Shown piece by piece: positions 6,001 to 63,154 of a stretch of 64,000 bases of DNA. The notes under the pieces were generated by a model that made no database searches, was not told the DNA's origin, and saw nothing but the letters and a program-made list of their open reading frames with translations. The position numbers were made by a program, and so were the translations under genes. The stretch is from Molanna angustata (Eukaryota > Arthropoda > Insecta > Trichoptera > Molannidae): positions 17,840,217 to 17,904,216 of the forward strand of contig OY754982.1 of NCBI GenBank assembly GCA_963576475.1, written 5' to 3'. Position 1 is the stretch's first letter. Every line of letters starts with the position of its first letter.

Positions 6001-9000
6001 TCCACAATGCACCATACACACAAAAACATTGTCACAAAACTCATAGTGTGCACTCTCTACATGATACCTGTTGAGAAATTAATGAAAAAAAATACACTTA
6101 AAAATTGCGAAATCATGACTCTCCACTATTCCATAGTGTGGTGAGTAAAAAGGTTTGATGTCATATGCTCATTGCATTTTTTATAATATCATACATAGAA
6201 TTTTAAATTATTATCTTTTTAAATACCCGTATTACATTATTGAATTGTTATCAGTACATACTTATCAATCCCATCAAATGAAGCTTCTTTTGAAGTAAGT
6301 CCACTATCAGAGTTTACACCATTCTAAAATGTGAAAAATAAAAACATATTGATTAAAACAAGAATTTATTTATGTACTACATCAAATTTTCAATAAATTA
6401 CATGTTTATTTTTTTCAATTAATTTTGATTTGATAAATACAAATACTCCAGCTTTGTTTGCAGAGAAAGAAAAAAAAAATACTTTGTAAGTATGAAATAA
6501 AAGAAGTTATAGATTTTATAAAATACATACTTACCAATACCAATAGTTTACTGGGATTCTTTTCTGATAGTATATCTACAATCTGAAAAATGAATAAGGA
6601 AATATTTTTATTCATTTAATTTATTGAAAATATCATGCAAAATATAATTTTGAACTGGTTACCCATTAAATATGAAATAAAATAAATAAAGTGAGTATAA
6701 ACAGTCTTCATTTGTTTCCTCATACCTTAGTATCATAGCCCCGTAATAATTAGAATAGGGGCCTGTGAACTTTTTTGGAGTTATGCCAGATAACTAGGTC
6801 TTTTAGGTTGAGTAAACAAAAAATATCAAATGATAATTTAAAAAAAACACTAAACCAACCAATAATGTGTTTTCAGTCTGGATCTGTGAGACGATTAATA
6901 TTGTAATTCTCCAGAATGTGGCAACTTGTTATTGGGTGCGTGTTTAATTAATATTTGACATAGTAGATGTTAGTTGCCCGAGAAGCAATATTAAATAACT
7001 AAATAATTTACAATGATTATGGTTGCGAAAATATACCTCAATCGAGTTGGTAATGCATAAATTTGTCACTAAGATAAAAAAATCATTATATCTCAATTAA
7101 CAAGATGTTTTATATTCAAAGAGTGGAAAAATGGCCGTTAATAATCAATTTTAATTTATACACCTTTGTTAGTGATCTATTCAATATTATGAACTCCATG
7201 TGCATTAAAAGACAAACTAATTTCAATTTATTGACTTTGATCTAACCTGATTTATCAATACTCATTCCAATTACTTTAAAAGGAGCACACATCTTTATAC
7301 AAACAAATTAATTGCATTTTTTTTCCCTTCAATCACAGTAGCTCAATCAAGGGACCACCGTTAGTTGAGTATCCCTACGAAATATAAAATCCTAACTATG
7401 ACAAGTATATACCAAAATTAGAAGAACCCGGTAGCCCATTTAAATTTTGTATATGTGAATTTTTATTGAAAACAAATATTATTGCTTTACAATCATATTT
7501 TTTTATTAACAAATTGGATCAATTAGTTTTGTGTAAAAATGATGAATAAGTGTTATACTCATATCATCTACATTTTAAAATCCAATAAGTCTTACCTAGA
7601 AGTGTTATCACTAGTGTCTTTATGGCTAAATTCTTCTGAATATCTAAACACCTTGTCAGTAAATTTTGATTTCATGGGCATCTCCATTGCGTTCACTCCT
7701 CAAAGGATATAATAACAATCAGATATAGGTGGTAATGTTTGATTACCTGATCAACATAATAAACATCATCTATCTGATAGATTTTCTTAAAATCTTCGGG
7801 TGCAAGAAGTGGTCCCATCCAAATGGCGTAATCTTCGGGAAGTCTTGGAATGAACAATGTGGCTGCACCGGTACCGCCTTGGATGGCCAGGAAACATCCC
7901 ACTTCTCGTACTCCAGACGCCCACATAAAGTAGGACTCCTGGAAAAAACAAACATCATCAATAAATTATTTTTTCTTGTCATATTTTTATTCTATTTGAA
8001 TAAAATATACTTAGTCCACACTTATGTGATTTGATATTAGTGATGGGATCATGCTGAAAATCAGCTGCTGTGGGCTTTTCCTCCTGCAATATAACTATGC
8101 ATGGTCCTTTTGAGGCGGAAAAGTTGTTTTTACAGGTCAGCGGGTGTGCAATACCTTATAAAAGGAAACACGGCACATGTGTGTATTCCCACACACCAGT
8201 CTAGTTTCACTTAAAAAGGTAACATTCGAATGAGACGGAAAAGTTGTTTATTTTTATCAATGATTTTTCTCTTGTAATTTGTTATTTGTATTCAATCTGT
8301 TTGTCTCAATAAATGTTTTATTATTATGACAACTCAGTTAAACATCTTAATCCTTAGCTATTTACAGGTACGATTCCCTGTGGGATTACAGCTTTTCACT
8401 GTGACTAAGTTGTTTTATGAGAAGATCAACATAATATAATATGTATCTCTTTACAATATGGCACCTCGATATTGAGGGATATAATGAATACCTATAGACA
8501 TATTATTTTAAATGTAAAGAAGCAGTAAAATAACTTATACACACATATTTTAGGCTATTAACAGCTAATTGACCATGCTTTTTTTCGTGTTTCTTTCTAA
8601 AATTCTGCCAAAATCTGAAAAATTTGCAATGGGTATATATATAGTTGTCACCAAATATCTTGAGCCATTTTGCCGAGTAGGGGGGCGATATGCACATATA
8701 CCAACGAAGCAAAAAGACACAAGTTTGCGCTCTTCGCACCCGGAATTTGGCAACAACTTTACATACGTGTCTTAACCAGTCAGGAGCTATCAATATGTAT
8801 TTTTTTATTTAAAAATAACAATTTTTCAATACAAATAAGTAATAATACATAAGTTATGCAACCATTTTTGTTGATTCCCCAGACTTGTTAAAAAAAATTG
8901 CTTTTATTGTCCGAGCTGAACAACCAGATATCCTAGCACTTTTTATATTCCTAATTGTAATAATCACTACACTCAGAATGCATTTGTGTTGAGTGCTTGC

Positions 9001-33000: not shown

Positions 33001-36000
33001 TATTGCCTAGTGTTACCTCAGAACAGGCTTTGCCTAGTGAGGTAATAAATTCCATTTATATATTTCATGTTATGTTATATTTTATATTATATTTTGTATT
33101 GTATTATGGAAATAAATTTAAAAAAAAAATGCTTTAACCTTGACATTTTGTAAAATAACAATATTGAGTCTATTCATACGCGAAGTAAATAATATACCTG
33201 AGTAGCTTATTTTTTTATCGCGAAACATTGAAATTGGCTATATTTTGCGTTTAACATCATTAACATAACTCTAAAACATAATCGATCATAACCGATTTCG
33301 CTCACCTATAGCACAATCATTATGCTTAATTAAGGGAAACTATGATAAAAAAATAAAACATGATAATTTTAAGTTCCAACTATATATTTAGTTTCTTATA
33401 TGCAGGTACATGTTATTCAGTTAAAAATCATTTCATCATAGGTATATTTAATGGAAATGAAGCAAAGAAATTACGGTTTATTAAATTAATGTAAAGACAT
33501 CTGCTTCTTATCTTAAACACTTGCAAAAAACAACAGACGTTTTTAAAACAATATTATGTAGTCTTATTTGAACAACAAAAAAAGAATAATAATTTCCCTA
33601 TAAAGTTGATAAATAAACATAAAAACAATATTATGTAATGATTAGACAAGTCTTCTTTGAACAACAACATACGAATAATAATTTCTCTATAAAATTGATA
33701 AATAAATTTAGTTTTTTATGTTAGTAAGATGAAAATAAGTAGGATGAAAATAAATGCCCTAAGGTGGTTCGGCCACATAGAAAGAATGAGTGATGACCGT
33801 CTGACAAAAAAAGTATACAAGGCTGATAAAAGAGGAATGAAAAGTAGAGGTCGGCCAAGAAAGAGTTGGCACGATCACATAAATGGGATTTTGAAAGATG
33901 GAGATGTTAGAAGTAAGAATAATAGAAGAGCGTGTATGAGACGATGTATGGACGTGAATGAAGCGAGGAATGTATGTCAAGAGAGAGGAGTCTGGCGTTC
34001 GGTTCTCTCTGCCTACCCCAAATAGGGAAATGGCGTGATGGTATGGGTATTTTGTAAGTATGTAGGTATTTTTACTCCTCACTAACACAAGGTGATATAG
34101 TGGGGAGTTATGATTTCGCAATTTTTAAGGGTATTTTTTTTTTTGCAGATTATCAACTAGTATCATGCTGAGATTGTATTCTGAAAGTTTCATCACAATG
34201 TATCTGTGTGTGTGTGCTATGTGCAGTGTGCTATGTGCAGTGTGCTATGTGCTATGTGCTATGTACGGCGTGTTCATTTTACTTTATCGATTATAGACTA
34301 AAGTACTCATTCGATTCTATTCAAATTTTGCAAATTTGTATATCTAATGCTCACTTAGATCCCATTAGATTTTGAACGATATATGAATAGTGCTTCTCAA
34401 TTTTTTTAACTGTCAAATATTTCAAAGTGACCCCAAGCTCAGGAAACTTAAAATTTGAAATTTTTATTTTCAAATAGGTAAAAAGGCTCCTCACTTTCAT
34501 AAAATGGCATTAAAGAAATATCAACTTTTCATAATAAAATAAAAAAATAATTAAACAAACTCATTTCATAAAATCGCTGAAAATTTTCCATACAAAATTT
34601 GAGTACGGAACATCTTTGACTAGGTATATACCAAAGACCTTATAATAATATATACTGACTAAAGGTTATATATTAACATTATTATTGTGAAATTTGCTCT
34701 GTTTATGTTAAATTATTATTTAATTTTACTCTTTTACATCATTTTTCATAATATCTTATATGAATATTAGGAAAATGTTTATTTTATCAGTTTTTTTTAG
34801 AAACCGGACGTCATAAGAGTTTATTTTCTAGAAATATACTAGTTACTAATAAATATTTTGTGTTTTTTTACATACATACTATCATGCCTTGTTCATATTG
34901 AGGTAGGCAGAGAGAACCGAGCGCCATACTTTCCTATCCTGATATACTTTTCTCGCTTCACTTAATCCAAACATTGCCTCATGCACACTCTCCTACTATC
35001 TAAACTTCAGATTCCATTCATGTGATTTAAATGAGTCTTTCTCGACCGACCTCTATCTCTTATTCCGCATCTTTTAGCCATGTATAATTTTTTTGTCAAC
35101 TGTTCTTCATCTGTTCTTTCTATGTGGCCGATCCACTTAAGGACATATATTATATTTTTATCTTGCATGTGGCGTCCTTTTCCAACATACATTCTGTTCT
35201 TGTGCTTACTTTTTTTATTCAATCACACATCGTCTTATTACACATTTGTCTGAGAGACCTCATTTCAACGGCAGTTATTCTACTTGGGAAACTTGATGTT
35301 TTACTATGTTGTTTTGAAAAATATATAAAAAGGACATTATTTACATTGAATTACATTCATGTATTCTCAATGTAACATAAAGAAATTAAGTTTATAAAAA
35401 AATAACAAAACAAATAATATTCATCAATTACTAATTTCCACTAGCGTCTACAATCCGCATTAACCATTCCGCATTATGTTTCCGGTTGGCTCTCTGATTG
35501 GTTGAGGTCTCGTAGTATGGAGTCAAATGAGCTGTGAAATTTTATATTAAATGCAATAAATTAAATAAAAAATGTAAATTTAACTTATAATAATTTATAA
35601 TTCAATTTATAAAGCAACTCGCTCACGCGAGTCGCTATTATTATTATACACAAACTTACACCTAACCTAATAATGCAGAAAAGAAGAGCTGGGGCTAGAC
35701 GCTACTCTAATTTCCAATGTAAAGTTTGAATTTAGAACAACTTGTATAGACTTAATATTGATTTTTGAAATCATAATATTGTGTATGTTCATCATGAGTA
35801 ACAAACTATATTTTTCCAGACCAGCCATAACATGTCATGCATAGAAAACTTTCATATTACTATATAATATAATTTATATTTCACAAAGTATGCTTTTGAA
35901 AAATTTCTTTTAGAATTTTTGGTTCATTGTCTTAAAATTATGCACAAAAGCTAAAGAAATATTTCATGGTATTAGTTAAAGCAGCACTTCAGAGATCAAG

Positions 36001-39000
36001 TGATTTTTTTTTCCTATATTATGTTTAGTATTATATATTAAAAGTGTTCTTTGATTGACCAGACTCTTATTGAGCAGTCTCTCTCGCACCCACACATTTA
36101 CAGATCTATGTCACTGTGCACTACGAGCTCAGGAGATTAGTCTGTGTATAATAAATCGTTAAATTTTAGTGACTTTAAATATATATATTTGTAAAATAGA
36201 AATAGAATAATGTTTATAAAGAAATGCTTTTACTCATAAGCAAAATTTGAATGAAAAACAGCTTTTGTTATACTGAATGAGGGCAATATAGAAATATTAT
36301 TTTCAATATTTGTCTTGTTTGTAGTAAATCGTTTGTCTAATTTAATTATTATATTTATAAAATTTCTCATACCTAATGTATGTGATTCTTATACATACCA
36401 TAATGCCATGATCCTCACATGGTAGACAGAGAAAACTGAATGCTATATATCTTGACACACAATCATCGCCTTGTCAACATTCATACATCTTCTTATACAT
36501 GTTTATCTGTTCTTCACGCTTCTAACCTTTTCGTCTTTCAAAATACCATTCACATGGTCATGCCATCCCTTTCTTGGGCGGCATTGATTTCTCATTTCAT
36601 TCCTATGCGCATTGTATATTTTCTTCGTCAGGCATTCCTCATTCATTCTCGCCATGTGGCCAATTAATGAATGAAATGAATTCATCATTTTCATTCTATT
36701 AATGACATCTATCTTCATCTTAAATTCATTTTAGTGATCTCATTTAAACTGCATTTATTCAGCTTTCATGTGACTTCTGCCATGTCCAGGTTTCACTTGC
36801 ATACATCAAGGTTGGCACTATTAAGATAGCGTTATCAATGGCAACTTTAGCATCCTTTGATATGTTGCGGTCATTCATAACTGGTCTAAGTGCTCCATTC
36901 CCTCTGTTTCTTGCCATAACTCTTCTTTCGATCTCCTTATCAATCCGTCCATTCCGGTATTCCGTTGCTTCCCAAATAGACATATTCGTCTACTTGCTTG
37001 AACCATTTGTTCTCTAATTTTATTTGGTACGCTGTTCTGCTTTCACTCTTTTGAAACACCATTTGAACTTCGATTTGCTGGCATCCATTCTCAGTACGTT
37101 CTCTTTACATCCTTCATATACTATACTTACTGAATTGTCAACGTTTTGACATTTCTCATATACCTACTAAAATTCAGACAGATAAATTTAAACGAATCGG
37201 AATGGGACATATTATGAATATTTCGATTTGTGTGATAGATTTTGTATTTTAATGAATTATTGTGTTGTTTTTCTTGTTAATTGTTGTGTTGTTTAATACG
37301 AGTTTTATGTTTTATTTTTACCATATTTTTATAATGGCTAAGAGGCCGTGTATGTGAATATAAATAAATAAATTTCAGACCCTTGCTATCCTCCATAAAA
37401 GTTCTGATGCAACATTCAACGTATAGATTGAAGAGCCATGGAGATAGCATGCACCCCATTATTTATAGAGAACTATGTTGTTACTGTGTCGGTGACACAA
37501 ACACGTGATATTCAGTAGTGGCCAAAAGAATGGAAACTTTTTATTTTGACTACATTTTTCAACTTACTAGGTGATTCATTTTACTTTTTCATTGAAATTT
37601 TATTGCATTCTTATTGTTTTTAATGACAAATATTTTCTTTTGTTTATTTCGCAAGAAACAATAAATATTTTTTTAATTGTTTTAACTTTTTTTTACAAAA
37701 TTAGTTAATCCTTTCTAATTTGTCTCATAATGAGTTGTAAGGAACATATACCTTACTATTTGATGATATGAATCATCATTATTACTCACATTATTTCTGG
37801 AAATTTGTTTTTTTGATGTCTGTGATCATTAGAAAGTAATTATTGAGGATATTTGAAATCCTATCTAAGCAAGAGCTATTAGTCTGTCGTTCGTCCTGTA
37901 CTGTGTCATTTGTAAGTGGTTGGACTGTTTTTCAAATTCTGAGATTATTTTATTCTGAAACTTCTTCTGAAACATGCTTGGAGGCTACTGGTCACCTACA
38001 AAATGTAGTAGAGCAGTTACCCTACGAGAAGAGGGATATACATATAAACAAATTGCTGAAAAGTTGGGACACAGAGCGTCCAAGTCTGGAGTTCAAAGGT
38101 CTGCGAGAGGTTCAAAGTCTCCAAAAGTTTACACAATGCTGTAAAATCTGGCAGAAACCGGAAGACGTTATTGATAGACGACAGAAGGATAACGAAATTA
38201 GCTCTTCAAGACCGTAGATCCACTTCGAGTGATATCCAACACATCCTTGCTGAGAGTGGTATAATTGTAAGCGCTAGGACGATTCGACGACGCCTAGTCA
38301 ACAATGGATTAAGGGCCAGAAGCCCAAGTAAAAAAGCTTACTTGTATAGTAAACAAAGGGAAAAAAGACTCAATTGGGCAAAAGAACACAAGAATTGGAC
38401 CAAAGAAGACTGGAAGAATGTAATCTGGAGCGATGAAACAAAAATTTCTATATTTGTATCGGATGGAATAAAGTATGTTAGGAGGAGAACTGGAGAAGAC
38501 TTGTTACCAGTGTGTACCACCGTCACCATGAAGCACCCTCTCAGCATAATGATATGGGGGTGCATGTCAAGAAGTGGCGTGGGTCGTCTACATATCATTG
38601 ATGGGACGTTACATGAAAAAAATACAAGGAGACTATCTTGGATCCAAAGTTAAAGCCTTTTATAGCGGATCTGTTTGGAGAAAATAGAGAGACATGCATA
38701 TTCCAGCAAGACAACGCACCCTTTCATACTGCTAAAAGTGTCTCAAGCTGGTTCGAAGAAAATAATATTATGGTACTTAAGTGGCCTGGTAACAGCCCAG
38801 ATCTTAATTAGATAGAAAACTTGTGGGCCAGGTTGAAAATCTTTGTATCTTTATACTTTGCTGCTATTGCTTTGTGGCACATTTTAACTAATATAATTAA
38901 ATAAAATCTCTTATCGAATAAGAGGGCCCTGATTGAAGCTGTAATAAAATCATGATTCAAGGTCATCAATAATGCAGATTTGGAGAAGTTGGTGGACTCA

Positions 39001-42000
39001 ATGCCTCGAAGAATGAAGGCTGTGATAAAAAATAAAGGCTACCCAACTAAATACTAAAGTGATTTATCTTAAACACGTGAATTTTAAATTTTATTGTCAT
39101 TAACAATTTTCCATAGCTGAGCACAATATTTTTTATATTTTATTCAATGTACAATAATTTTAATAAAATGTGTATTATATCTGAATATTTTATGTATAAA
39201 TGATAATTCATGCATAACCCACACTATAATAAAGACAAGGCAATAATATTTTTTTAGAAATATTCATTTAGAAATCTAAGAAGGAAGATTTTCTATATAA
39301 TTTAGTCGAGTAAAAAATAGTTTCCATTTTTTTGGCCACTACTGTATTATATAGGTACAAATTTTTATTTGTTAACCGTTCATCTTAAGTTCATTCTATA
39401 TGGTCAAACAAAAAAAATATAAACCAAATTTTGAATTAATTGAACTAACATATTTAACAAACCAAATATTTATTTAGAAATAATTGAAATAGCCCACCTA
39501 AGTGTTGAAGAATGATAAATTACTGATTTTCAAATAATAAGTACCTGCCAATAAATCTAAAGTTTAAGTTATGGTTTAAGTATTGAATTTAGAATAAAAT
39601 ATGAAATTATGTGAACAAAAAACTGATTTAATAGATAAACATTATTTTTGAAAAATAGTACAATATAATAATTTATAGTACAAGTCATTGAACCAGCCAT
39701 TGTATGTAGTACAAGTCATTGAACGACTGTTAGTCAAGTAAAGGTTTTTTAAACAACTGCGATCGAGCGCCATTGTTGATTGTTTTGGCAGGGTTGAAAT
39801 TCATAGTATAATTAGTTGCATGTAACTAGGGAATGCAATCCCGCAGGACGATGTCAATCCAGGTATTTGCGGGACTGAACAATCTTAGTACCGCTGGATC
39901 CAGGTATTTGCGGGATCCAGCAGGGTGGACTTAGATATCTTATCAATCGTATAATAAAGACCTAATTAATACCTCGATCTACCAACCTTGTTTTTAGAGT
40001 TTTAAATTTATACCTAATCAAACACGTTCTTTGGGACATTTTAAATGGTTTATTAACATACTTACCTCTAGTTAGACATCGGTAAAGTTTGTCATAAATT
40101 GGCAAAGAATAAAATGAGACATAAATTTATATTACAAATTAAATTTAAATAATAACGTTCACACGACAAACAATATTTTTGTACAATAAGCATCATAAGT
40201 TTAAACATTATTTTGGAAATAGCTTCGTAAAAAAGTTAAAGTATTGTGTCGTCTGATAAACGGCTTCTGATATTGGACACAAGGTAGCCAGTGGCTGAAA
40301 AAGCTCGTTCAGATTCCACGCTGGTTGGCACAATAGTCATTTGCGCATTGTAAGTGAATTGAAGGTATGTGCCTTTCCACCGGACTCGAAATAATTCATT
40401 TCCTTCTTTATCAAAACCTCAATGTTGCTCATATTGCCAGATCTAGGTTGTTGGGCTGTTGATCTCGAACTCTTCATACTAATCAAAGTAAGTTTGAGTT
40501 CGTCTTGAAGTGACATTGGTGCTGCTGCTGCTGCTGCGTATGTCTCCTGATTTGCGAGAGGAGTGTCGTCATCCTAAGGTTCATCAGCGTCAGCAGGAGC
40601 AGTGGCTTCTGCGTTGTTACCCATGTCCGTGTACTCTAGCCTTTCGACTATAGTTTTGATTGTCTTGCATATTAAACTTTTTGAAGGTAGACTAAATGTG
40701 TCATCAACATTAATAAATTGACTACTGTCTTCTTCGTACTTATATGGATCATGTAAGTATATAATAAAACCGCTGTCAAGTTAGTTCGCCGCTCTGAAAT
40801 CCGTTTCCTCAACAAATCAACAAAGAGTAACACGTATGAATTACGCTTCTCTGTAATCCCGCCAGTCCAGCGGGAAACGCAAAATTTTCGACCGAGATTA
40901 GTCCCGCAAAATGTCTGCGGGATCTCGGTATTTCGGGATCCCGTTTGGGATTGCATTCCCTACATGTAACACATTACATCCAACTGTTGATAGTATGTGT
41001 ATAGTAAAAGAATACGTAAAAATCCATGTATTTTATAAATAAAAATAAATAAACGTACCAAACTATGAACCCTAGCATCTAAATTATTGAATATTTTTAA
41101 GATATTTTGTTTTTTATATAAAAAATGTATGTCAGGCAAGACTTGTGTGAAGGTCAGTAGGTACTTTTTCCTCTCTCGAATATGTAAACAGCTTGATGGT
41201 ATGTATGTATGGAGATTAAGTATCAAACTACTGAGATTCCCCGTAAGAAAAGTTCAAGATGCACTGCGATAGTGTATATGTTTTTATAGAAAATTAAATT
41301 ATCTAGTTGGTTTTTCTGCGTTTTTCAATATTTAAGAAAAATGGGAAATAAAGTCAGTAAAAAACACACAAATTATTATAAAAAATATACATAAATATAT
41401 GTTTTTAATTTGATGCCAAAAAGAATAGTGTTTGTAATCATTTTTATTGACTCACAAACAGCGAAGTGTATAATTTTATTTTAATATTATATTTATTACG
41501 CTGCAGTTTATCAATGTTGGAGATAGTTTTTTCAAGTCAAGTTTGTTCAAAATGCAGAAAAATATCAAAAAACATTAGGTTTCCGTTGATTTAATTCACG
41601 TATAAAACTTTTTTAACGCACGTGATATTTATCTTAACTAACATGTAACTTCATCATGTATTAGGGTGTTTTAATAAATCATATTATATTCAATTACTAG
41701 ATTCAGTGTTTTATGTTCTCTTAATTTCTCCCAAATGTAAAACAAAATGTTTAATTTTGTTTTATAAAAGTCTGTACTTAACATCTATAAAACATATTGT
41801 CATATAAAAGGAATATAACAGGTTCATCGACAACTACATATTATGTTTTATAAAAGTTTTTGTTTTTCATTTATAAAACCAACTGTTGATAATAGGTATA
41901 TAAACGTCACACTAATAATTTTATGTCGTATTGAAGTCATCCATAATACCACTATACAATCGTCTATTAAAGTTTTTTCTAAAACGTTTATAGGCCAATA

Positions 42001-45000
42001 AGTTGTTTAGATGTTATAATAATACCCTTTTTATGACGATATTGTCTTTTTAAAAATCTTTATACAACTGAAATGTTTTTACGACTTACAGATTTGTTAA
42101 GTTAACGTTTCGATTAAGACCATTATGTGATCCTTGTATAATTACGTTGCAAAAACGTTTATTGGACGTTGCAATTAGACTATTTAGTTAGAGGACTTAA
42201 CCGTCAGATGTACAACGTCTATACGACTAACAGAGTTAGTTAATAACCACTATAAAACTCCTATACGACTAAAAGTCATAGGTATAACTCTTATTTATAC
42301 GACTTGTTTGCTAGTTGGATTGTCTCTGGGGGAAACATAAAATTAAAATAGTCGCATCATTTCTATCTTCGGCCTTCGTGGCTCAGTTGGTTAGGTATCT
42401 GACTACTGATCCAAGGGTCCCAGATTCGATTCCCGGTGGAGATACAGTTTTTAATTGTGTTTTAAGTCTGGCTCTGTGAGACGATTAATACCATAAGCAG
42501 ATCGTAAGTCTCCAGAATGTGGCAGCTTGTTATTGGTGCATGTTAAATAATTATTTGACATTGTACCTGTTAGTTGCCCGTGAAGCTACATAAAATAAAA
42601 AGTTATAATATAATATTATGCTGATTAATTATTTAAATGTTTTATCAAATGACAGAACGAACGCGTATAATATCTGTCAAATGACAAATGTCAACCACGG
42701 TAGACGGTGCTGCCAGGACTTAAATTTTTAGATATTATTGGAGAGTTGCACGAAAAAAATATGAATCCTTATGAAGAAGGGGTTGAACTTAACATTGTTT
42801 TTACTCCTCACTACCCCAAGGGGATTTATGAATTCGCAATTTTTAAAGTAATTTTTTATTGCAGATTATCAACTAGTATCATGCTGGGATTGCATTCTGA
42901 AAGTTTTATCACAATGTATCTGTGTGTGTGTGTGCTGTGTACTATAATATACTACGTACGGCGTGTTTATTCTAGATTATCGATTATAGACTAAAGTGCT
43001 CATTCGATTATTTTCAAATTTTGCAAATTTGTATATCAAAAACTCGCATAGACCTCATTAGATTTTGAAGGATATCTGAATAGTGGTTTTCATTTTTTTT
43101 AACTGTCAAATATTTCAAAGTGACTCCCATGCTCAGGAAACTCGAAATTTGTTATTTTTATTTTCAAATTGCTAAAAGGGCACATCACTTAAATAAAATG
43201 TCATTAATAAATATCAATTTTTCATAATAATATATTTAAATAATAAAAGAATTAAACTCACTAAATTCATAAAATTGCCGAAAACTTTCTATAGAAACTT
43301 TGAATACTCTATAGTGACTTGTTAGTGAGGAGTTTAGCGTTGGCCACAACCCACTCGTTTTTTCATGCAATTAAAATAAGGATATATTTTACATAATGAT
43401 ATTCGAAGGTGAGTCGAGTTAGATACTCGTTTTTTGTAATAAAAAAATGTACCATTTTTTCTTAATTATGTAGTATATGGACCTTTTGAACAAAATAAAT
43501 ACAAATACATTAGAAACGAGTGGGTTGTGGCCAACGCTAAACTCCTCACTAACAAGTCACTATAGAGTATTCAAAGTTTCTATAGAAAGTTTTCGGCAAT
43601 TTTATGAATTTAGTGAGTTTAATTCTTTTATTATTTAAATATATTATTATGAAAAATTGATATTTATTAATGACATTTTATTTAAGTGATGTGCCCTTTT
43701 AGCAATTTGAAAATAAAAATAACAAATTTCGAGTTTCCTGAGCATGGGAGTCACTTTGAAATATTTGACAGTTAAAAAAAATGAAAACCACTATTCAGAT
43801 ATCCTTCAAAATCTAATGAGGTCTATGCGAGTTTTTGATATACAAATTTGCAAAATTTGAAAATAATCGAATGAGCACTTTAGTCTATAATCGATAATCT
43901 AGAATAAACACGCCGTACGTAGTATATTATAGTACACAGCACACACACACACAGATACATTGTGATAAAACTTTCAGAATGCAATCCCAGCATGATACTA
44001 GTTGATAATCTGCAATAAAAAATTACTTTAAAAATTGCGAATTCATAAATCCCCTTGGGGTAGTGAGGAGTAAAAACAATGTTAAGTTCAACCCCTTCTT
44101 CATAAGGATTCATATTTTTTTCGTGCAACTCTCCAATAATATCTAAAAATTTAAGTCCTGGCAGCACCGTCTACCGTGGTTGACATTTGTCATTTGACAG
44201 ATATTATACGCGTTCGTTCTGTCATTTGATAAAACATTTAAATAATTAATCAGCATAATATTATATTATAACTTTTTATTTTATGTAGCTTCACGGGCAA
44301 CTAACAGGTACAATGTCAAATAATTATTTAACATGCACCAATAACAAGCTGCCACATTCTGGAGACTTACGATCTGCTTATGGTATTAATCGTCTCACAG
44401 AGCCAGACTTAAAACACAATTAAAAACTGTATCTCCACCGGGAATCGAATCTGGGACCCTTGGATCAGTAGTCAGATACCTAACCAACTGAGCCACGAAG
44501 GCCGAAGATAGAAATGATGCGACTATTTTAATTTTATGTTTCCCCCAGAGACAATCCAACTAGCAAACAAGTCGTATAAATAAGAGTTATACCTATGACT
44601 TTTAGTCGTATAGGAGTTTTATAGTGGTTATTAACTAACTCTGTTAGTCGTATAGACGTTGTACATCTGACGGTTAAGTCCTCTAACTAAATAGTCTAAT
44701 TGCAACGTCCAATAAACGTTTTTGCAACGTAATTATACAAGGATCACATAATGGTCTTAATCGAAACGTTAACTTAACAAATCTGTAAGTCGTAAAAACA
44801 TTTCAGTTGTATAAAGATTTTTAAAAAGACAATATCGTCATAAAAAGGGTATTATTATAACATCTAAACAACTTATTGGCCTATAAACGTTTTAGAAAAA
44901 ACTTTAATAGACGATTGTATAGTGGTATTATGGATGACTTCAATACGACATAAAATTATTAGTGTGACGTTTATATACCTATTATCAACAGTTGGTTTTA

Positions 45001-48000
45001 TAAATGAAAAACAAAAACTTTTATAAAACATAATATGTAGTTGTCGATGAACCTGTTATATTCCTTTTATATGACAATATGTTTTATAGATGTTAAGTAC
45101 AGACTTTTATAAAACAAAATTAAACATTTTGTTTTACATTTGGGAGAAATTAAGAGAACATAAAACACTGAATCTAGTAATTGAATATAATATGATTTAT
45201 TAAAACACCCTAATACATGATGAAGTTACATGTTAGTTAAGATAAATATCACGTGCGTTAAAAAAGTTTTATACGTGAATTAAATCAACGGAAACCTAAT
45301 GTTTTTTGATATTTTTCTGCATTTTGAACAAACTTGACTTGAAAAAACTATCTCCAACATTGATAAACTGCAGCGTAATAAATATAATATTAAAATAAAA
45401 TTATACACTTCGCTGTTTGTGAGTCAATAAAAATGATTACAAACACTATTCTTTTTGGCATCAAATTAAAAACATATATTTATGTATATTTTTTATAATA
45501 ATTTGTGTGTTTTTTACTGACTTTATTTCCCATTTTTCTTAAATATTGAAAAACGCAGAAAAACCAACTAGATAATTTAATTTTCTATAAAAACATATAC
45601 ACTATCGCAGTGCATCTTGAACTTTTCTTACGGGGAATCTCAGTAGTTTGATACTTAATCTCCATACATACATACCATCAAGCTGTTTACATATTCGAGA
45701 GAGGAAAAAGTACCTACTGACCTTCACACAAGTCTTGCCTGACATACATTTTTTATATAAAAAACAAAATATCTTAAAAATATTCAATAATTTAGATGCT
45801 AGGGTTCATAGTTTGGTACGTTTATTTATTTTTATTTATAAAATACATGGATTTTTACGTATTCTTTTACTATACACATACTATCAACAGTTGGATGTAA
45901 TGTGTTACATGTAGGGAATGCAATCCCAAACGGGATCCCGAAATACCGAGATCCCGCAGACATTTTGCGGGACTAATCTCGGTCGAAAATTTTGCGTTTC
46001 CCGCTGGACTGGCGGGATTACAGAGAAGCGTAATTCATACGTGTTACTCTTTGTTGATTTGTTGAGGAAACGGATTTCAGAGCGGCGAACTAACTTGACA
46101 GCGGTTTTATTATATACTTACATGATCCATATAAGTACGAAGAAGACAGTAGTCAATTTATTAATGTTGATGACACATTTAGTCTACCTTCAAAAAGTTT
46201 AATATGCAAGACAATCAAAACTATAGTCGAAAGGCTAGAGTACACGGACATGGGTAACAACGCAGAAGCCACTGCTCCTGCTGACGCTGATGAACCTTAG
46301 GATGACGACACTCCTCTCGCAAATCAGGAGACATACGCAGCAGCAGCAGCAGCACCAATGTCACTTCAAGACGAACTCAAACTTACTTTGATTAGTATGA
46401 AGAGTTCGAGATCAACAGCCCAACAACCTAGATCTGGCAATATGAGCAACATTGAGGTTTTGATAAAGAAGGAAATGAATTATTTCGAGTCCGGTGGAAA
46501 GGCACATACCTTCAATTCACTTACAATGCGCAAATGACTATTGTGCCAACCAGCGTGGAATCTGAACGAGCTTTTTCAGCCACTGGCTACCTTGTGTCCA
46601 ATATCAGAAGCCGTTTATCAGACGACACAATACTTTAACTTTTTTACGAAGCTATTTCCAAAATAATGTTTAAACTTATGATGCTTATTGTACAAAAATA
46701 TTGTTTGTCGTGTGAACGTTATTATTTAAATTTAATTTGTAATATAAATTTATGTCTCATTTTATTCTTTGCCAATTTATGACAAACTTTACCGATGTCT
46801 AACTAGAGGTAAGTATGTTAATAAACCATTTAAAATGTCCCAAAGAACGTGTTTGATTAGGTATAAATTTAAAACTCTAAAAACAAGGTTGGTAGATCGA
46901 GGTATTAATTAGGTCTTTATTATACGATTGATAAGATATCTAAGTCCACCCTGCTGGATCCCGCAAATACCTGGATCCAGCGGTACTAAGATTGTTCAGT
47001 CCCGCAAATACCTGGATTGACATCGTCCTGCGGGATTGCATTCCCTAGTTACATGCAACTAATTATACTATGAATTTCAACCCTGCCAAAACAATCAACA
47101 ATGGCGCTCGATCGCAGTTGTTTAAAAAACCTTTACTTGACTAACAGTCGTTCAATGACTTGTACTACATACAATGGCTGGTTCAATGACTTGTACTATA
47201 AATTATTATATTGTACTATTTTTCAAAAATAATGTTTATCTATTAAATCAGTTTTTTGTTCACATAATTTCATATTTTATTCTAAATTCAATACTTAAAC
47301 CATAACTTAAACTTTAGATTTATTGGCAGGTACTTATTATTTGAAAATCAGTAATTTATCATTCTTCAACACTTAGGTGGGCTATTTCAATTATTTCTAA
47401 ATAAATATTTGGTTTGTTAAATATGTTAGTTCAATTAATTCAAAATTTGGTTTATATTTTTTTTGTTTGACCATATAGAATGAACTTAAGATGAACGGTT
47501 AACAAATAAAAATTTGTACCTATATAATACAGTAGTGGCCAAAAAAATGGAAACTATTTTTTACTCGACTAAATTATATAGAAAATCTTCCTTCTTAGAT
47601 TTCTAAATGAATATTTCTAAAAAAATATTATTGCCTTGTCTTTATTATAGTGTGGGTTATGCATGAATTATCATTTATACATAAAATATTCAGATATAAT
47701 ACACATTTTATTAAAATTATTGTACATTGAATAAAATATAAAAAATATTGTGCTCAGCTATGGAAAATTGTTAATGACAATAAAATTTAAAATTCACGTG
47801 TTTAAGATAAATCACTTTAGTATTTAGTTGGGTAGCCTTTATTTTTTATCACAGCCTTCATTCTTCGAGGCATTGAGTCCACCAACTTCTCCAAATCTGC
47901 ATTATTGATGACCTTGAATCATGATTTTATTACAGCTTCAATCAGGGCCCTCTTATTCGATAAGAGATTTTATTTAATTATATTAGTTAAAATGTGCCAC

Positions 48001-51000
48001 AAAGCAATAGCAGCAAAGTATAAAGATACAAAGATTTTCAACCTGGCCCACAAGTTTTCTATCTAATTAAGATCTGGGCTGTTACCAGGCCACTTAAGTA
48101 CCATAATATTATTTTCTTCGAACCAGCTTGAGACACTTTTAGCAGTATGAAAGGGTGCGTTGTCTTGCTGGAATATGCATGTCTCTCTATTTTCTCCAAA
48201 CAGATCCGCTATAAAAGGCTTTAACTTTGGATCCAAGATAGTCTCCTTGTATTTTTTTCATGTAACGTCCCATCAATGATATGTAGACGACCCACGCCAC
48301 TTCTTGACATGCACCCCCATATCATTATGCTGAGAGGGTGCTTCATGGTGACGGTGGTACACACTGGTAACAAGTCTTCTCCAGTTCTCCTCCTAACATA
48401 CTTTATTCCATCCGATACAAATATAGAAATTTTTGTTTCATCGCTCCAGATTACATTCTTCCAGTCTTCTTTGGTCCAATTCTTGTGTTCTTTTGCCCAA
48501 TTGAGTCTTTTTTCCCTTTGTTTACTATACAAGTAAGCTTTTTTACTTGGGCTTCTGGCCCTTAATCCATTGTTGACTAGGCGTCGTCGAATCGTCCTAG
48601 CGCTTACAATTATACCACTCTCAGCAAGGATGTGTTGGATATCACTCGAAGTGGATCTACGGTCTTGAAGAGCTAATTTCGTTATCCTTCTGTCGTCTAT
48701 CAATAACGTCTTCCGGTTTCTGCCAGATTTTACAGCATTGTGTAAACTTTTGGAGACTTTGAACCTCTCGCAGACCTTTGAACTCCAGACTTGGACGCTC
48801 TGTGTCCCAACTTTTCAGCAATTTGTTTATATGTATATCCCTCTTCTCGTAGGGTAACTGCTCTACTACATTTTGTAGGTGACCAGTAGCCTCCAAGCAT
48901 GTTTCAGAAGAAGTTTCAGAATAAAATAATCTCAGAATTTGAAAAACAGTCCAACCACTTACAAATGACACAGTACAGGACGAACGACAGACTAATAGCT
49001 CTTGCTTAGATAGGATTTCAAATATCCTCAATAATTACTTTCTAATGATCACAGACATCAAAAAAACAAATTTCCAGAAATAATGTGAGTAATAATGATG
49101 ATTCATATCATCAAATAGTAAGGTATATGTTCCTTACAACTCATTATGAGACAAATTAGAAAGGATTAACTAATTTTGTAAAAAAAAGTTAAAACAATTA
49201 AAAAAATATTTATTGTTTCTTGCGAAATAAACAAAAGAAAATATTTGTCATTAAAAACAATAAGAATGCAATAAAATTTCAATGAAAAAGTAAAATGAAT
49301 CACCTAGTAAGTTGAAAAATGTAGTCAAAATAAAAAGTTTCCATTCTTTTGGCCACTACTGAATATCACGTGTTTGTGTCACCGACACAGTAACAACATA
49401 GTTCTCTATAAATAATGGGGTGCATGCTATCTCCATGGCTCTTCAATCTATACGTTGAATGTTGCATCAGAACTTTTATGGAGGATAGCAAGGGTCTGAA
49501 ATTTATTTATTTATATTCACATACACGGCCTCTTAGCCATTATAAAAATATGGTAAAAATAAAACATAAAACTCGTATTAAACAACACAACAATTAACAA
49601 GAAAAACAACACAATAATTCATTAAAATACAAAATCTATCACACAAATCGAAATATTCATAATATGTCCCATTCCGATTCGTTTAAATTTATCTGTCTGA
49701 ATTTTAGTAGGTATATGAGAAATGTCAAAACGTTGACAATTCAGTAAGTATAGTATATGAAGGATGTAAAGAGAACGTACTGAGAATGGATGCCAGCAAA
49801 TCGAAGTTCAAATGGTGTTTCAAAAGAGTGAAAGCAGAACAGCGTACCAAATAAAATTAGAGAACAAATGGTTCAAGCAAGTAGACGAATATGTCTATTT
49901 GGGAAGCAACGGAATACCGGAATGGACGGATTGATAAGGAGATCGAAAGAAGAGTTATGGCAAGAAACAGAGGGAATGGAGCACTTAGACCAGTTATGAA
50001 TGACCGCAACATATCAAAGGATGCTAAAGTTGCCATTGATAACGCTATCTTAATAGTGCCAACCTTGATGTATGCAAGTGAAACCTGGACATGGCAGAAG
50101 TCACATGAAAGCTGAATAAATGCAGTTTAAATGAGATCACTAAAATGAATTTAAGATGAAGATAGATGTCATTAATAGAATGAAAATGATGAATTCATTT
50201 CATTCATTAATTGGCCACATGGCGAGAATGAATGAGGAATGCCTGACGAAGAAAATATACAATGCGCATAGGAATGAAATGAGAAATCAATGCCGCCCAA
50301 GAAAGGGATGGCATGACCATGTGAATGGTATTTTGAAAGACGAAAAGGTTAGAAGCGTGAAGAACAGATAAACATGTATAAGAAGATGTATGAATGTTGA
50401 CAAGGCGATGATTGTGTGTCAAGATATATAGCATTCAGTTTTCTCTGTCTACCATGTGAGGATCATGGCATTATGGTATGTATAAGAATCACATACATTA
50501 GGTATGAGAAATTTTATAAATATAATAATTAAATTAGACAAACGATTTACTACAAACAAGACAAATATTGAAAATAATATTTCTATATTGCCCTCATTCA
50601 GTATAACAAAAGCTGTTTTTCATTCAAATTTTGCTTATGAGTAAAAGCATTTCTTTATAAACATTATTCTATTTCTATTTTACAAATATATATATTTAAA
50701 GTCACTAAAATTTAACGATTTATTATACACAGACTAATCTCCTGAGCTCGTAGTGCACAGTGACATAGATCTGTAAATGTGTGGGTGCGAGAGAGACTGC
50801 TCAATAAGAGTCTGGTCAATCAAAGAACACTTTTAATATATAATACTAAACATAATATAGGAAAAAAAAATCACTTGATCTCTGAAGTGCTGCTTTAACT
50901 AATACCATGAAATATTTCTTTAGCTTTTGTGCATAATTTTAAGACAATGAACCAAAAATTCTAAAAGAAATTTTTCAAAAGCATACTTTGTGAAATATAA

Positions 51001-54000
51001 ATTATATTATATAGTAATATGAAAGTTTTCTATGCATGACATGTTATGGCTGGTCTGGAAAAATATAGTTTGTTACTCATGATGAACATACACAATATTA
51101 TGATTTCAAAAATCAATATTAAGTCTATACAAGTTGTTCTAAATTCAAACTTTACATTGGAAATTAGAGTAGCGTCTAGCCCCAGCTCTTCTTTTCTGCA
51201 TTATTAGGTTAGGTGTAAGTTTGTGTATAATAATAATAGCGACTCGCGTGAGCGAGTTGCTTTATAAATTGAATTATAAATTATTATAAGTTAAATTTAC
51301 ATTTTTTATTTAATTTATTGCATTTAATATAAAATTTCACAGCTCATTTGACTCCATACTACGAGACCTCAACCAATCAGAGAGCCAACCGGAAACATAA
51401 TGCGGAATGGTTAATGCGGATTGTAGACGCTAGTGGAAATTAGTAATTGATGAATATTATTTGTTTTGTTATTTTTTTATAAACTTAATTTCTTTATGTT
51501 ACATTGAGAATACATGAATGTAATTCAATGTAAATAATGTCCTTTTTATATATTTTTCAAAACAACATAGTAAAACATCAAGTTTCCCAAGTAGAATAAC
51601 TGCCGTTGAAATGAGGTCTCTCAGACAAATGTGTAATAAGACGATGTGTGATTGAATAAAAAAAGTAAGCACAAGAACAGAATGTATGTTGGAAAAGGAC
51701 GCCACATGCAAGATAAAAATATAATATATGTCCTTAAGTGGATCGGCCACATAGAAAGAACAGATGAAGAACAGTTGACAAAAAAATTATACATGGCTAA
51801 AAGATGCGGAATAAGAGATAGAGGTCGGTCGAGAAAGACTCATTTAAATCACATGAATGGAATCTGAAGTTTAGATAGTAGGAGAGTGTGCATGAGGCAA
51901 TGTTTGGATTAAGTGAAGCGAGAAAAGTATATCAGGATAGGAAAGTATGGCGCTCGGTTCTCTCTGCCTACCTCAATATGAACAAGGCATGATAGTATGT
52001 ATGTAAAAAAACACAAAATATTTATTAGTAACTAGTATATTTCTAGAAAATAAACTCTTATGACGTCCGGTTTCTAAAAAAAACTGATAAAATAAACATT
52101 TTCCTAATATTCATATAAGATATTATGAAAAATGATGTAAAAGAGTAAAATTAAATAATAATTTAACATAAACAGAGCAAATTTCACAATAATAATGTTA
52201 ATATATAACCTTTAGTCAGTATATATTATTATAAGGTCTTTGGTATATACCTAGTCAAAGATGTTCCGTACTCAAATTTTGTATGGAAAATTTTCAGCGA
52301 TTTTATGAAATGAGTTTGTTTAATTATTTTTTTATTTTATTATGAAAAGTTGATATTTCTTTAATGCCATTTTATGAAAGTGAGGAGCCTTTTTACCTAT
52401 TTGAAAATAAAAATTTCAAATTTTAAGTTTCCTGAGCTTGGGGTCACTTTGAAATATTTGACAGTTAAAAAAATTGAGAAGCACTATTCATATATCGTTC
52501 AAAATCTAATGGGATCTAAGTGAGCATTAGATATACAAATTTGCAAAATTTGAATAGAATCGAATGAGTACTTTAGTCTATAATCGATAAAGTAAAATGA
52601 ACACGCCGTACATAGCACATAGCACATAGCACACTGCACATAGCACACTGCACATAGCACACACACACAGATACATTGTGATGAAACTTTCAGAATACAA
52701 TCTCAGCATGATACTAGTTGATAATCTGCAAAAAAAAAAATACCCTTAAAAATTGCGAAATCATAACTCCCCACTATATCACCTTGTGTTAGTGAGGAGT
52801 AAAAATAAACGGGATCGCTGGCAAGATGTTTTATAATAAGTATTGTTCAATATTGTTTTACGATACGTTAGCAAAATGCATGGATTTTTAGCGAGTTGTA
52901 CCCCACTTCCCCGCGCATGTCGCTGTAACAATGCCCGTTCCTAAACGACTCCCGCGCTCGCCACTACGTAGGTAGGTACATATCGTGGCGTGAGTACGTT
53001 CACCAAAGTATGCAGGTATATTTGGTACATACCAAACTGTTGCATTATTTCTATTTTGCATATAATCCTAAACACCCCAATTTCAAATCAAATTCCTCAA
53101 TTATGTTAGCATTGTGTTTTCAAAATTTCGCTAGTGAATGTTCGTTCGTCTTACAATTTTAAAATACAGCTTAAATTCCCCTAAAAAATATTAAAAATAA
53201 CCTTTATTACAGCATTTTTTTAAAATTACTCCATAAATATGTACATGTCAAAGAGAAATAAATCTTTTACATGCTCAAAGAGTGTACAAAATTCAAGTGA
53301 ATGACCGATAAAGTTTTTAATTTCAAGTAAGTTTTGTTCTTAAAATGCAAAAAAATCAACAAATTTTGAGTTTCCGATAGTTTAAATCACATATAAACCT
53401 TTTTTAACGCGCGCGATATTTACCCTTACTAACACTTAGATTCATAGTACATTGGGCGGTTTTTATACATCATGTTTTCAGTCACTAGATTTAGCGTTAT
53501 ATGCCCTCTTGAGCCGTTAATAAAGAAATCCATCATCATTTCCTGTCCCTCTATTATTTAGTTCATCGGGGGTCGGGTCTCCTAGCAAGAATCGCCATAA
53601 TCTGAGTTGTCTCTTGTGGAACTCCCTGTGCTCCCTTTCGATAATCGACAATGGAAATTGATAAAGAAAAAAAAATGGTATGTTTCGATATAATTTTTGT
53701 GATAGAAATGTAAAAGACAATAATATGTTTATTTCCATCACAAATCGTCCAAATGAATCCATGAATTTATTCCAAGTGTCCGATTTAAATGGATCGGCAA
53801 TTCAATCATGAACTATTGCGTTTGAAACGTCAAGCAATAGGTTCAGATTATGAATAGTTGATCTTCTTCTTTTTCTCAGAAATTGTCCCACATAATGGCG
53901 GGGTCTGCTTTCTGTGTCTTGCGCTTCCACTGTCTTCGGTTCCGCACGTCCTCTGATTACTCCGTTACATAGCATAACCTGTATCGCCACTTATTTCCAT

Positions 54001-57656: not shown

Positions 57657-59566
57657 CTGAAAGACACTTTTCAATTGATATAACAAAGTCAAATACTATA
57701 TCGAAAACAAAATATACGAAATTCAGTCATTTGACTTTTCGACAAGCAAATTATTATTGGTATTAGGGACAGGAGGAGTGCATATCAGGATAGAGGAAGA
57801 TGGCAATGAATACTGGATGACGTCATGACCCACAACGGCCATTGATGAATGAATGAAGATAAGTATTGCAATAATGGAAATCCATTTTTTTAGTTTATAA
57901 ATCAAAAATAAGAATATTAAATGAATTAATAAAAATACAAATATTAGAACGAAATTATGTTTATTGACAATAAACAAATAAAAAAATGATAAGTTTAATA
58001 GCAAAAATATACAAATAAACGTGAACGACAAACAGGAATGCATTCTGCGGTAACAGATTGTATTTTCTTTCAATATTACCATAATTTAATTCAGTCCGTA
58101 CATATTAGGTAGGTACATAAATAAATTGGAATAAACATATTAAACATCATCCGGATGTATTTAAAGTCAATTTCTCTCCATCGCCTTTGAATGTTTAAAC
58201 ATGTGTGAACTATTTCGCCATATTGTATACATTTTGAATGAAATTCTGTGACGAAGTCGTCGAATGAGCTCTGATCTTTGAATTGTCATATTTGGATAGA
58301 GCTAATGAATGAAGTTGTTTACTAATATCGCAGTTTCTTCCTCTGTCGCTGTCCTGCTCTCTCTAGAAATAGGAGAAGCTCCATGGAAAGATTATTCTAT
58401 GATGATCTAATGGACATAGCGTCAACCGTTCTCCTACCACCCGCAAAAAACCCGCAGTTTTGTTGTAAACTGAACAATTAATTGGGATAAAAAATCTCTC
58501 TGACGTACGTTCTATAAGCTAACATCTTGAGGTTTCCAGAAATTTGTTTAAGACTACTTTGTTTCGCAGAGCTTATATAACGCCCTTGAAATAACTCTGA
58601 TCTGTTTGAAAATAATTTAGTCTTGTTCAAGAGATGATGATGTACAAGTATCCCTCAATCACTTCGATGGTGGCCGACCCTTAGGAATTCCATTTTTATA
58701 GATTCATTTATCAGCGTCACATTTTTTTTAAGTAAATAGTATCAAATGGCGTGTACGCCGAGAAAATATATTTATTTAGATGCAGTTATATCACGACGAC
58801 ATTGATAAGATTGATAAAATGTCGGTAAATACACCAAAACTGATAATATTATATAAGAATAAAACATCACCAAAATGATTAGGTACCTCCACATATATGT
58901 AATATATTAGGTACCTATATTAGGTACCTCCACATATACACATTGTGTAAGTGAATTTCCTCATATTATAATGGCCGAACACTGCGGTCACCTTCAGTTT
59001 TATTTAGGGGTTATCTCGTTTCAAAACATTCATCATACATTTATGTAGATACCTATCGATCTTATCATAATAAAACACAATGCATGTTAAAATGCTTTTC
59101 ATTTAAATGTGCACTTCGTAGCTATTATGGTATGATTGAATTTGGTGTTGTTACGCGTTAAAAAATGGATTTTTTTAACTTCTTGTGTAATTTTTTAAAG
59201 TTATTTCTGATGATTTTTTGTTTAAAATAATTAAAGAAGTCATATTGCATTCTATCATATACATTTCAGATTGTAATCTTTTACATTTTTTTTTTATTAT
59301 TCAGTCTTAAATATGACATTAAAGGAACATAATTTGGAGATATGGCAACATTATTCAGTTTATTTCACTGATTGACAGTCGTACCAACATTAGCATGAAG
59401 TGCACTTATAAGAAATGAAACGCAGTTTACTTAATAATATTATTATTCTAATGACGCAATGCTGGAAAAAAAGCATAGATACATTGTTTAACATCAAGTT
59501 GATGTTCACAAACGTAAACATTAATGTTAGATGGGAACGGATGAAATCATAATAATAAATAATGTG
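57657..59566. other. Sequence 5' of the visible prolidase exons
   Basis: It should contain the prolidase upstream intron and possibly its first exon or promoter, but I cannot place either. The open frame at 57723-58082 (minus) is a hydrophobic low-complexity run. A partial tandem ggtacctccacatata occurs twice near 58882 and 58924. Confidence 0.4.
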
Positions 59567-62867: not shown

Positions 62868-63154
62868 TAAAACATTGGGTAAGTAAGGGGGCATATAAAC
62901 CTAAACACTACAAAACATTAAGTAAGGGGGCAAATAAACCTAAACACTACAAAACATTAAGTAAGGGGGCAAATAAACCAAAACACTACTAAACAATAAG
63001 TAAGGGGTCATATACACCTAAACACTACAAAACATTAAGTAGGTAAGGGGGCATATAGGTAAACCTAAACACTACAAAACATTAAGTAAGGAGGCATATA
63101 AACCTAAACACTACTAAAACATTAAGTAAGAGGGCATATAAACCTAAACACCCC
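62868..63154 (+). repeat. 39-bp tandem repeat, about 7 units
   Basis: Unit aaaacattaagtaaggggg followed by c(a/t)aataaacctaaacactac. Units start near 62868, 62912, 62953, 62991, 63030, 63075 and 63116, with small insertions (ggta) in some. It abuts repeat R2 at 63130. Confidence 0.85.

What the first reader, a model, noticed from the sequence alone, without database searches (positions are those of the whole stretch)
34067..52807. 18.7-kb near-perfect palindrome inside a host-gene intron
Two 9294-bp arms mirror each other at coordinate sum 86874 with no net indel. All open frames, frameshifts and element boundaries recur identically, around a 153-bp unique spacer. It sits between two prolidase exons, so the host transcript must cross it and could fold into a 9.3-kb duplex. 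Arms this similar imply very recent duplication, ongoing gene conversion (as in sex-chromosome ampliconic palindromes), or a misassembly.
Basis: seen in the sequence. Interest (0 to 1): 0.92.

Follow-up and report, generated by a model that had tools for sequence, protein, structure and literature searches.

The report
Two mirrored jumping-gene copies in intron
The 18.7-kb mirror-image sequence is most likely two identical copies of a recently spread 9.3-kb mobile element that landed tail to tail, 153 bases apart, inside an intron of an insect enzyme gene, so the palindrome itself needs no new mechanism.

Summary
The palindrome is real in the sequence and perfect: 9294 of 9294 mirrored bases match around a 153-bp spacer. 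It lies in a ~49.5-kb intron of a prolidase gene in a 995-Mb insect genome, possibly a caddisfly. It is not an ampliconic palindrome. Each arm, less its outer 2 bp, is a complete 9292-bp mobile element. Twelve further full-length copies were scored elsewhere in the assembly. Three of them were read in full: 99.8-99.99% identical, same two ends, other flanks, no mirrored partner in the 1.5 kb before and 2.7 kb after. So two copies sit tail-to-tail, and their identity reflects a young family. [quoted passage not shown] the 3' hairpin is weak. The 22-bp 3' terminus occurs 9409 times genome-wide, reversed control 0. The element joins a HINE lacking its terminator to a complete one 8.2 kb downstream, which fits read-through capture (inferred). 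Reads were not available; misassembly is disfavoured, not excluded.

The parts
34069..43360 (+). Left copy of the 9292-bp HINE/Helentron-like element (5' end outward, 3' end towards the spacer)
   Evidence: 12 other full-length places scored outside the window; three read in full, 99.78-99.99% identical
43514..52805 (-). Right copy of the same element, inverted; identical to the left copy in 9292 of 9292 bases
43361..43513 (.). 153-bp host spacer, member of a dispersed repeat family
   Evidence: (40 scored of 431 candidates, itself included)
34069..34606 (+). HINE 'A': 5' part of a short HINE lacking the last ~53 bp (3' subterminal repeat, hairpin, terminus)
   Evidence: ~80% alignment with 42798-43307 that stops before the 3' end
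34607..42797 (+). ~8.2 kb of DNA between the two HINE parts (captured, by inference); repeat and transposon debris, no host-gene domain found in the frames scanned
42798..43360 (+). HINE 'B': complete ~560-bp short HINE that supplies the 3' end of the 9.3-kb element
   Evidence: Complete short copies of 512-559 bp at three other places; sequence
34074..34087 (+). 5' subterminal inverted repeat ACTCCTCACTAACA, 5 bp (T-run) from the 5' terminus
34098..34108 (+). 3' half of the DINE-1-type 5' inverted repeat (TAGTGGGGAGT pairs with ACTCCTCACTA)
   Evidence: Folded as DNA, z = -3.70
34212..34264 (+). Short tandem repeat after the 5' block (14-bp unit, 3.8 copies)
43320..43333 (+). 3' subterminal inverted repeat TGTTAGTGAGGAGT, 27 bp from the 3' terminus
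43339..43350 (+). 3' mini-hairpin GTTG-GCCA-CAAC; the terminal 22-mer (43339-43360) occurs 9409 times genome-wide
   Evidence: (stem not more stable than shuffles, z = -0.62)
38060..38650 (+). Tc1/mariner-type transposase remnant inside the captured DNA (HTH_Tnp_Tc3_2)
   Evidence: mirrored at 48224-48814
57494..57658 (-). Prolidase (Xaa-Pro dipeptidase) N-terminal exon, upstream of the palindrome in the transcript
7744..7947 (-). Next prolidase exon; the intron between them holds the palindrome

Best explanation
The palindrome is two insertions of one recently active, non-coding 9292-bp element of the HINE (DINE-1-like, non-autonomous Helentron) type, tail-to-tail 153 bp apart in a prolidase intron. 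Shown: the arm is a complete unit that exists elsewhere as a single copy, with the same two ends and other flanks. Inferred: (1) the 9.3-kb element formed when rolling-circle copying began at a short HINE lacking its 3' terminator and ran 8.2 kb on to the terminator of a second HINE; (2) an autonomous Helitron or Helentron of this genome moved it in trans; (3) the two window copies come from one sub-lineage and arrived by separate hops close in time. Their identity reflects a young family, not gene conversion. The confidence given is for the core claim, two element copies; the inferred steps are less sure.
For: The first 2054 bp of the arm recur at ten other fetched loci at 99.46-100%, each starting at the arm's outer end (10 of 10); 14 full-length copies, 2 of them in the window, plus one cut by a contig end, among 15 scored of 31848 candidates. 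Among one search's 40 full-length 5'-end hits the window's is the only opposite-strand pair within 20 kb (read from the table, which is capped). 23 of 40 5' ends have a 3' end on the same strand's list, 22 of them 9.27-9.45 kb away; 17 have none in that capped list. The window copies are identical; C1 differs from them at 1 position, C22 at 8 plus 4 gap columns, C5 at 15 plus 4. Helentron-like ends. Complete short relatives. Open frames with a Helitron_like_N domain, up to 2436 aa, exist in this genome: (0 of 14 control genomes matched).
Against: The 3' hairpin stem is 4 bp and no more stable than shuffles. The 3' subterminal repeat lies 27 bp from the end, against 38-60 bp in mite HINEs (passage of PMC4067079). 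A T-only target duplication cannot be told from the boundary Ts. No orthologous empty site was read. Two copies of this subfamily 153 bp apart are unlikely by chance, so placement may not be random.
Confidence: 0.9

Rival explanations
1. Assembly error: only one copy (or a different arrangement) is present, and the assembler joined reads wrongly across a repeat with many near-identical copies.
For: The arms are 100% identical, and the family has many copies of 99.8-100% identity; 9.3-kb repeats challenge reads of ordinary length. No read data were available here.
Against: Both outer flanks differ and belong to the same prolidase gene; both junctions are at the family's own termini, as in the other copies read; the spacer is a dispersed host repeat. 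No N in the 264-kb region.
Confidence: 0.07
2. Local inverted duplication by fold-back or template switching of a chromosome segment, kept identical by gene conversion.
For: Perfect inverted repeat with a short spacer.
Against: The arm ends coincide on both sides with the termini of a dispersed element that is single in the three other copies read in full. A fold-back would not stop exactly at element ends. Family-wide identity already explains the match.
Confidence: 0.02
3. A variant of the best explanation: the two copies were inserted together in one event (paired or dimeric rolling-circle insertion) rather than by two hops.
For: The window copies are identical and group with C1 against C22 and C5 (unrooted). 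Another inverted pair was noticed on C9, 5' ends facing 218 bp apart. Expected neighbours within 250 bp for 60-500 copies: 0.0009-0.06 pairs.
Against: On C9 the left copy differs from the window copy by 9 mismatches and 35 gap positions over the 1318 bp read, while its partner's first 2050 bp are identical to it, so those two differ in age. Over all termini, tail-to-tail pairs with 140-170 bp spacers are not enriched: 2 places seen, 0.69 expected, P = 0.15.
Confidence: 0.12

Closest known systems
HINE / DINE-1 (INE-1), non-autonomous Helentrons (passages of PMC4067079)
   Same: Subterminal inverted repeats, DINE-1-type 5' inverted repeat nested in the 5' subTIR, microsatellite, 3' palindrome, boundary T-runs, no long reading frame (longest in the arm 197 aa stop to stop), high copy number
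   Different: 3' subTIR 27 bp from the end; weak 3' stem; this member is 9.3 kb because 8.2 kb of other DNA lies inside; no autonomous partner tied to it here
Helraiser/Helibat 3' read-through capture (abstract and passages of PMC4778049)
   Same: A missing or bypassed terminator leads to transduction of flanking DNA up to a new 3' end; here a terminator-less HINE is joined to a downstream HINE terminator
   Different: Inferred from anatomy, not observed; the TC / CTRR ends of Helraiser are absent here
Hel-2 and other lepidopteran non-autonomous Helitrons (passages of PMC4344730)
   Same: 5' inverted repeat, subterminal inverted repeats, microsatellite after the 5' block, 3' hairpin
   Different: Hel-2 has 5'-TC and 3'-CTRR ends and A/T flanks; this element does not
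Mu killer of maize (abstract and passages of PMC3440606)
   Same: Inverted duplication of transposon sequence able in principle to give hairpin RNA
   Different: No transcript, small RNA or silencing shown here, and this element encodes no transposase. That paper itself found that read-through transcripts from the flanking gene did not go with silencing

Membership tests
HINE / non-autonomous Helentron | 12-15 bp subterminal inverted repeats at both ends | tested here: met
   14 bp, ACTCCTCACTAACA / TGTTAGTGAGGAGT, perfect complement
HINE / non-autonomous Helentron | Distances of subTIRs from the termini (mite: 2-4 nt at 5', 38-60 bp at 3') | tested here: inconclusive
   5 nt and 27 bp; Fusarium Helitron2-like elements have ~20-40 bp at 3' (passage of PMC5148889)
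HINE / non-autonomous Helentron | Palindrome / stem loop near the 3' end | tested here: inconclusive
   4-bp stem GTTG-GCCA-CAAC folds but z = -0.62; the 22-mer holding it occurs 9409 times
HINE / non-autonomous Helentron | DINE-1-type inverted repeat beside the 5' subTIR | tested here: met
   z = -3.70
HINE / non-autonomous Helentron | Microsatellite after the 5' block | tested here: met
   34212-34264
HINE / non-autonomous Helentron | T-runs at the boundaries, varying in number | tested here: met
   5' TTTTT in all five copies read at both ends; 3' T-run of 6, 3, 5, 5, 5
HINE / non-autonomous Helentron | Insertion at TT without target-site duplication | tested here: inconclusive
   No duplication of 4 bp or more apart from T-only matches in 4 of 5 copies, which the boundary Ts explain as well
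HINE / non-autonomous Helentron | Shares ends with an autonomous Helentron (Rep/Hel/endonuclease) | not tested
Canonical Helitron (Helitron1) | 5' TC and 3' CTRR ends | tested here: not met
   Ends are TTTTTACTCC and CACTCGTTT
Ampliconic / gene-conversion palindrome | Arms specific to the locus and kept identical by conversion | tested here: not met
   12 full-length copies scored elsewhere

The most novel reading that the evidence does not exclude
The tail-to-tail pair lies in an intron, so the prolidase pre-mRNA would carry a perfect 9.3-kb hairpin whose arms match this young family across the genome. It could serve as a natural dsRNA trigger giving endo-siRNAs that silence the family, in the manner first proposed for Mu killer or reported for Drosophila hpRNA loci (PMC10317233, start of abstract in a listing only). 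Nothing here shows transcription or small RNAs, and for Mu killer the passages read report read-through transcripts in individuals that failed to silence.
Probability: 0.06. Interest if true: 0.75.

Novelty: new member of a known kind. Interest (0 to 1): 0.38.

Why it matters
It shows that a perfect giant palindrome in an assembly can be two young mobile-element copies back to back, and that the test is to look for the arm elsewhere in the same genome. It also documents a recent spread of a chimeric 9.3-kb Helentron-like element in an insect, possibly a caddisfly, whose 22-bp 3' terminus occurs 9409 times. The pair makes a long intronic inverted repeat that could be tested for dsRNA and for genomic instability.

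Tried and rejected
Rejected: a TA target-site duplication suggested by the outer TA of both arms; other copies are preceded by CA, GA, AA, AT, GT or TG as well. Rejected: a single transposon with 9.3-kb terminal inverted repeats; the three other copies read in full are single arms. Dropped: the spacer as a hairpin seed for fold-back duplication, once the arms proved to be element copies. Considered: that palindromes are common in this assembly and point to a fault. In the 264-kb region around the site five other long inverted matches were looked at; four lie in or beside AT repeats and one is an 840-bp palindrome at 99.5%.

Not achieved: a count of the 9.3-kb subfamily by pattern, requested and never answered. 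A search with the middle of the arm was asked twice, not answered, and dropped. No orthologous empty site and no autonomous partner with the same ends were obtained. Comparison of the joined empty site with fetched loci was weak and is not used as proof. Rfam and tRNA scans gave nothing. Search tables hold only the best-scored candidates (40 of 3511, 40 of 8226, 15 of 31848), so copy counts are lower bounds and a missing partner in them proves little: the left copy of the C9 pair is absent's list.
Full report
What is there. The window is C18:17840217-17904216 of an unnamed 994.8-Mb genome in 131 contigs. Positions 34067-43360 and 43514-52807 are reverse complements with 0 mismatches in 9294 and no indel; the spacer is 153 bp. 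In the protein search with the window's prolidase exons the best hit is an unnamed protein at 66%, the best named one is from the caddisfly Arctopsyche grandis at 65%, and moths and butterflies follow at 64% and less, with a wasp at 63% further down (taxonomy). The host is therefore possibly a caddisfly; the margin is small. Prolidase exons on the minus strand lie at 57658-57494 and 7947-7744, so the palindrome sits in an intron of about 49.5 kb.

The arm is a mobile element. A search of the same genome with the first 554 bp of the arm gave 40 full-length hits, and two short ones, from 40 scored of 3511 candidates; 26 of the 40 are at 100% by the table's rounding, two of these being the window's arms. 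In the ten fetched loci outside the window the match runs on for at least 2 kb at 99.46-100% and begins at the same base with a different flank (10 of 10; one of them, L035, also holds part of a second, inverted copy at 96.7%). A search with the whole arm scored 15 of 31848 candidates: 14 are full length, 2 of them in the window, and one is cut by the end of contig C48. Three copies were read in full (C22, C5, C1): each is one 9290-9292-bp unit, with no opposite-strand terminus of the family in the 1.5 kb before and 2.7 kb after it. The other nine full-length copies were not read. A search with the inner end gave 41 rows reaching the arm's 3' end and one short row, from 40 scored of 8226 candidates; 33 of the 41 end at the arm's last base or up to three bases past it, seven run 7-30 bases past it, and the window's left copy runs through its own spacer, which was in the query. 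In one search, 23 of 40 5' ends have a 3' end on the same strand, 22 of them 9.27-9.45 kb and one 10.5 kb away; 17 have none in the capped list. The window's left copy is inflated there by the spacer that was in the query.

Why the arms are identical. Both window copies agree in 9292 of 9292 bases. C1 differs from them at 1 position, C22 at 8 with 4 gap columns and C5 at 15 with 4. Wherever C22 and C5 agree with each other against the window, C1 goes with the window, so the window pair and C1 group together (unrooted; at the one site where C1 stands alone, C22 and C5 go with the window). The 95% upper bound on divergence of the pair is 0.00032. No conversion is needed.

What kind of element. 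It begins TTTTTACTCC and ends CACTCGTTT. A 14-bp inverted repeat lies 5 bp from the 5' end and 27 bp from the 3' end. The 5' repeat also pairs with a neighbouring stretch, folding better than shuffles (z = -3.70), while the 3' mini-hairpin has a 4-bp stem and is not better than shuffles (z = -0.62). A short tandem repeat follows the 5' block. In the five copies read at both ends no flank duplication of 4 bp or more was found except T-only matches in four, which the boundary T-runs explain as well. These are mostly the features given for DINE-1 and HINE elements, the non-autonomous Helentrons (passages of PMC4067079). The canonical Helitron ends are absent. The terminal 22-mer occurs 4721 times forward and 4688 reverse, with 0 in the reversed-pattern control. 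Helitron_like_N gave 141 matches among 150 scored of 163 candidates, and none in 14 control genomes; 43 rows share one score (211.9 bits) with open frames of 689-1546 aa, and a second group has frames up to 2436 aa. Rows are matches, not genes, and helicase domains were not checked. Which of them, if any, moves this element was not settled. Recent rolling-circle activity has been reported in some limnephilid caddisflies (one passage of PMC13045387).

How it was built. The first 538 bp align at about 80% with 42798-43307 inside the same arm. The inner copy is a complete short HINE of about 560 bp. Among 16 3' ends in 351 kb of fetched DNA, five are this inner copy in the five copies read, three are other complete short elements of 512-559 bp, and eight have no plausible nearby 5' end. 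The outer copy stops before the 3' repeat, hairpin and terminus. The simplest reading is that copying started at the terminator-less HINE and ended at the terminator of the next one, carrying 8.2 kb along, as in the read-through model for Helraiser (abstract and passages of PMC4778049). This step is inferred. The DNA between contains dispersed repeats that match other window copies, some of them LINE-like to my eye but without a Pfam match, and a Tc1-type remnant. Of four frames of it scanned (one of them partly in the inner HINE) one gave the Tc1 domain and three nothing; of ten nine gave nothing and one a match below its cut-off.

Why two copies lie back to back. Over all termini of the superfamily, tail-to-tail pairs with 140-170 bp between them are found at 2 places, the window and C22:24160859, against 0.69 expected (P = 0.15), so there is no sign of a special pairing process. 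For the 9.3-kb subfamily alone a pair this close is unlikely by chance if it has 60-500 copies, a range assumed because the count was not obtained (expected 0.0009-0.06 pairs within 250 bp). A second inverted pair, full length by its two ends, was noticed on C9 with 5' ends facing 218 bp apart. The window pair was itself the reason for looking, which weakens that argument. Local hopping or shared target preference may contribute.

Artefact question. A fold-back error would mirror the outer flanks; they differ, and both carry exons of one gene. No N was found in 264 kb around the site. A wrong join across copies of a family this similar is still possible and can only be settled with reads.

Consequences. 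A transcript across the site could fold into a 9.3-kb duplex. Inverted transposon pairs have been proposed as sources of hairpin RNA (Mu killer, abstract and passages of PMC3440606, which also report results against the flanking-gene read-through model) and are under-represented and unstable as DNA (Alu pairs, passages of PMC3215922). Neither was tested here. Three literature searches on inverted or tandem Helitron insertions and on Helitrons in caddisflies (12 of 45, 8 of 57 and 2 of 2 papers listed) showed no title on this arrangement. The one Helitron paper's listing uses the two orientation terms only in its reference list. Subscription papers are mostly not held, so this is no proof that it is unpublished.

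Noticed in passing
G000 C9:14165204-14183983: Another near-palindrome of the same family: two copies, full length by their two ends, head-to-head 218 bp apart.
   Followed up: partly
G000 C22:24160859-24161041: A second tail-to-tail pair of the 3' terminus with a 151-bp spacer.
   Followed up: no
G000 C15:9385947-9397297: A full-length copy with further family pieces on the same strand beside it, a possible tandem or nested cluster.
   Followed up: no
window 9722-9990 and 33778-34046: Two repeat pieces 98.5% identical (LINE-like to my eye, no Pfam match for the frame at 33702-34022), the second ending about 20 bp before the left element.
   Followed up: no
L010, window coordinates -81033 to -80194: An 840-bp palindrome at 99.5% identity, between direct repeats of about 95%, left of the window.
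   Followed up: no
window coordinates -57313 to -53735 (left of the window): An inverted repeat with 1.5-kb arms at 98.2% and a 558-bp spacer, outer ends in AT repeats.
   Followed up: no
window coordinates 123640-124536 (L024) and 130465-131638 (L025): Near-identical tandem arrays with a unit of about 109 bp right of the window.
   Followed up: no
window 62880-63151: A 39-bp tandem repeat, 6.7 copies.
   Followed up: no
G000, whole genome: 43 Helitron_like_N rows share one identical profile score with open frames of 689-1546 aa, and a second group has frames up to 2436 aa, suggesting recently active autonomous elements.
   Followed up: partly
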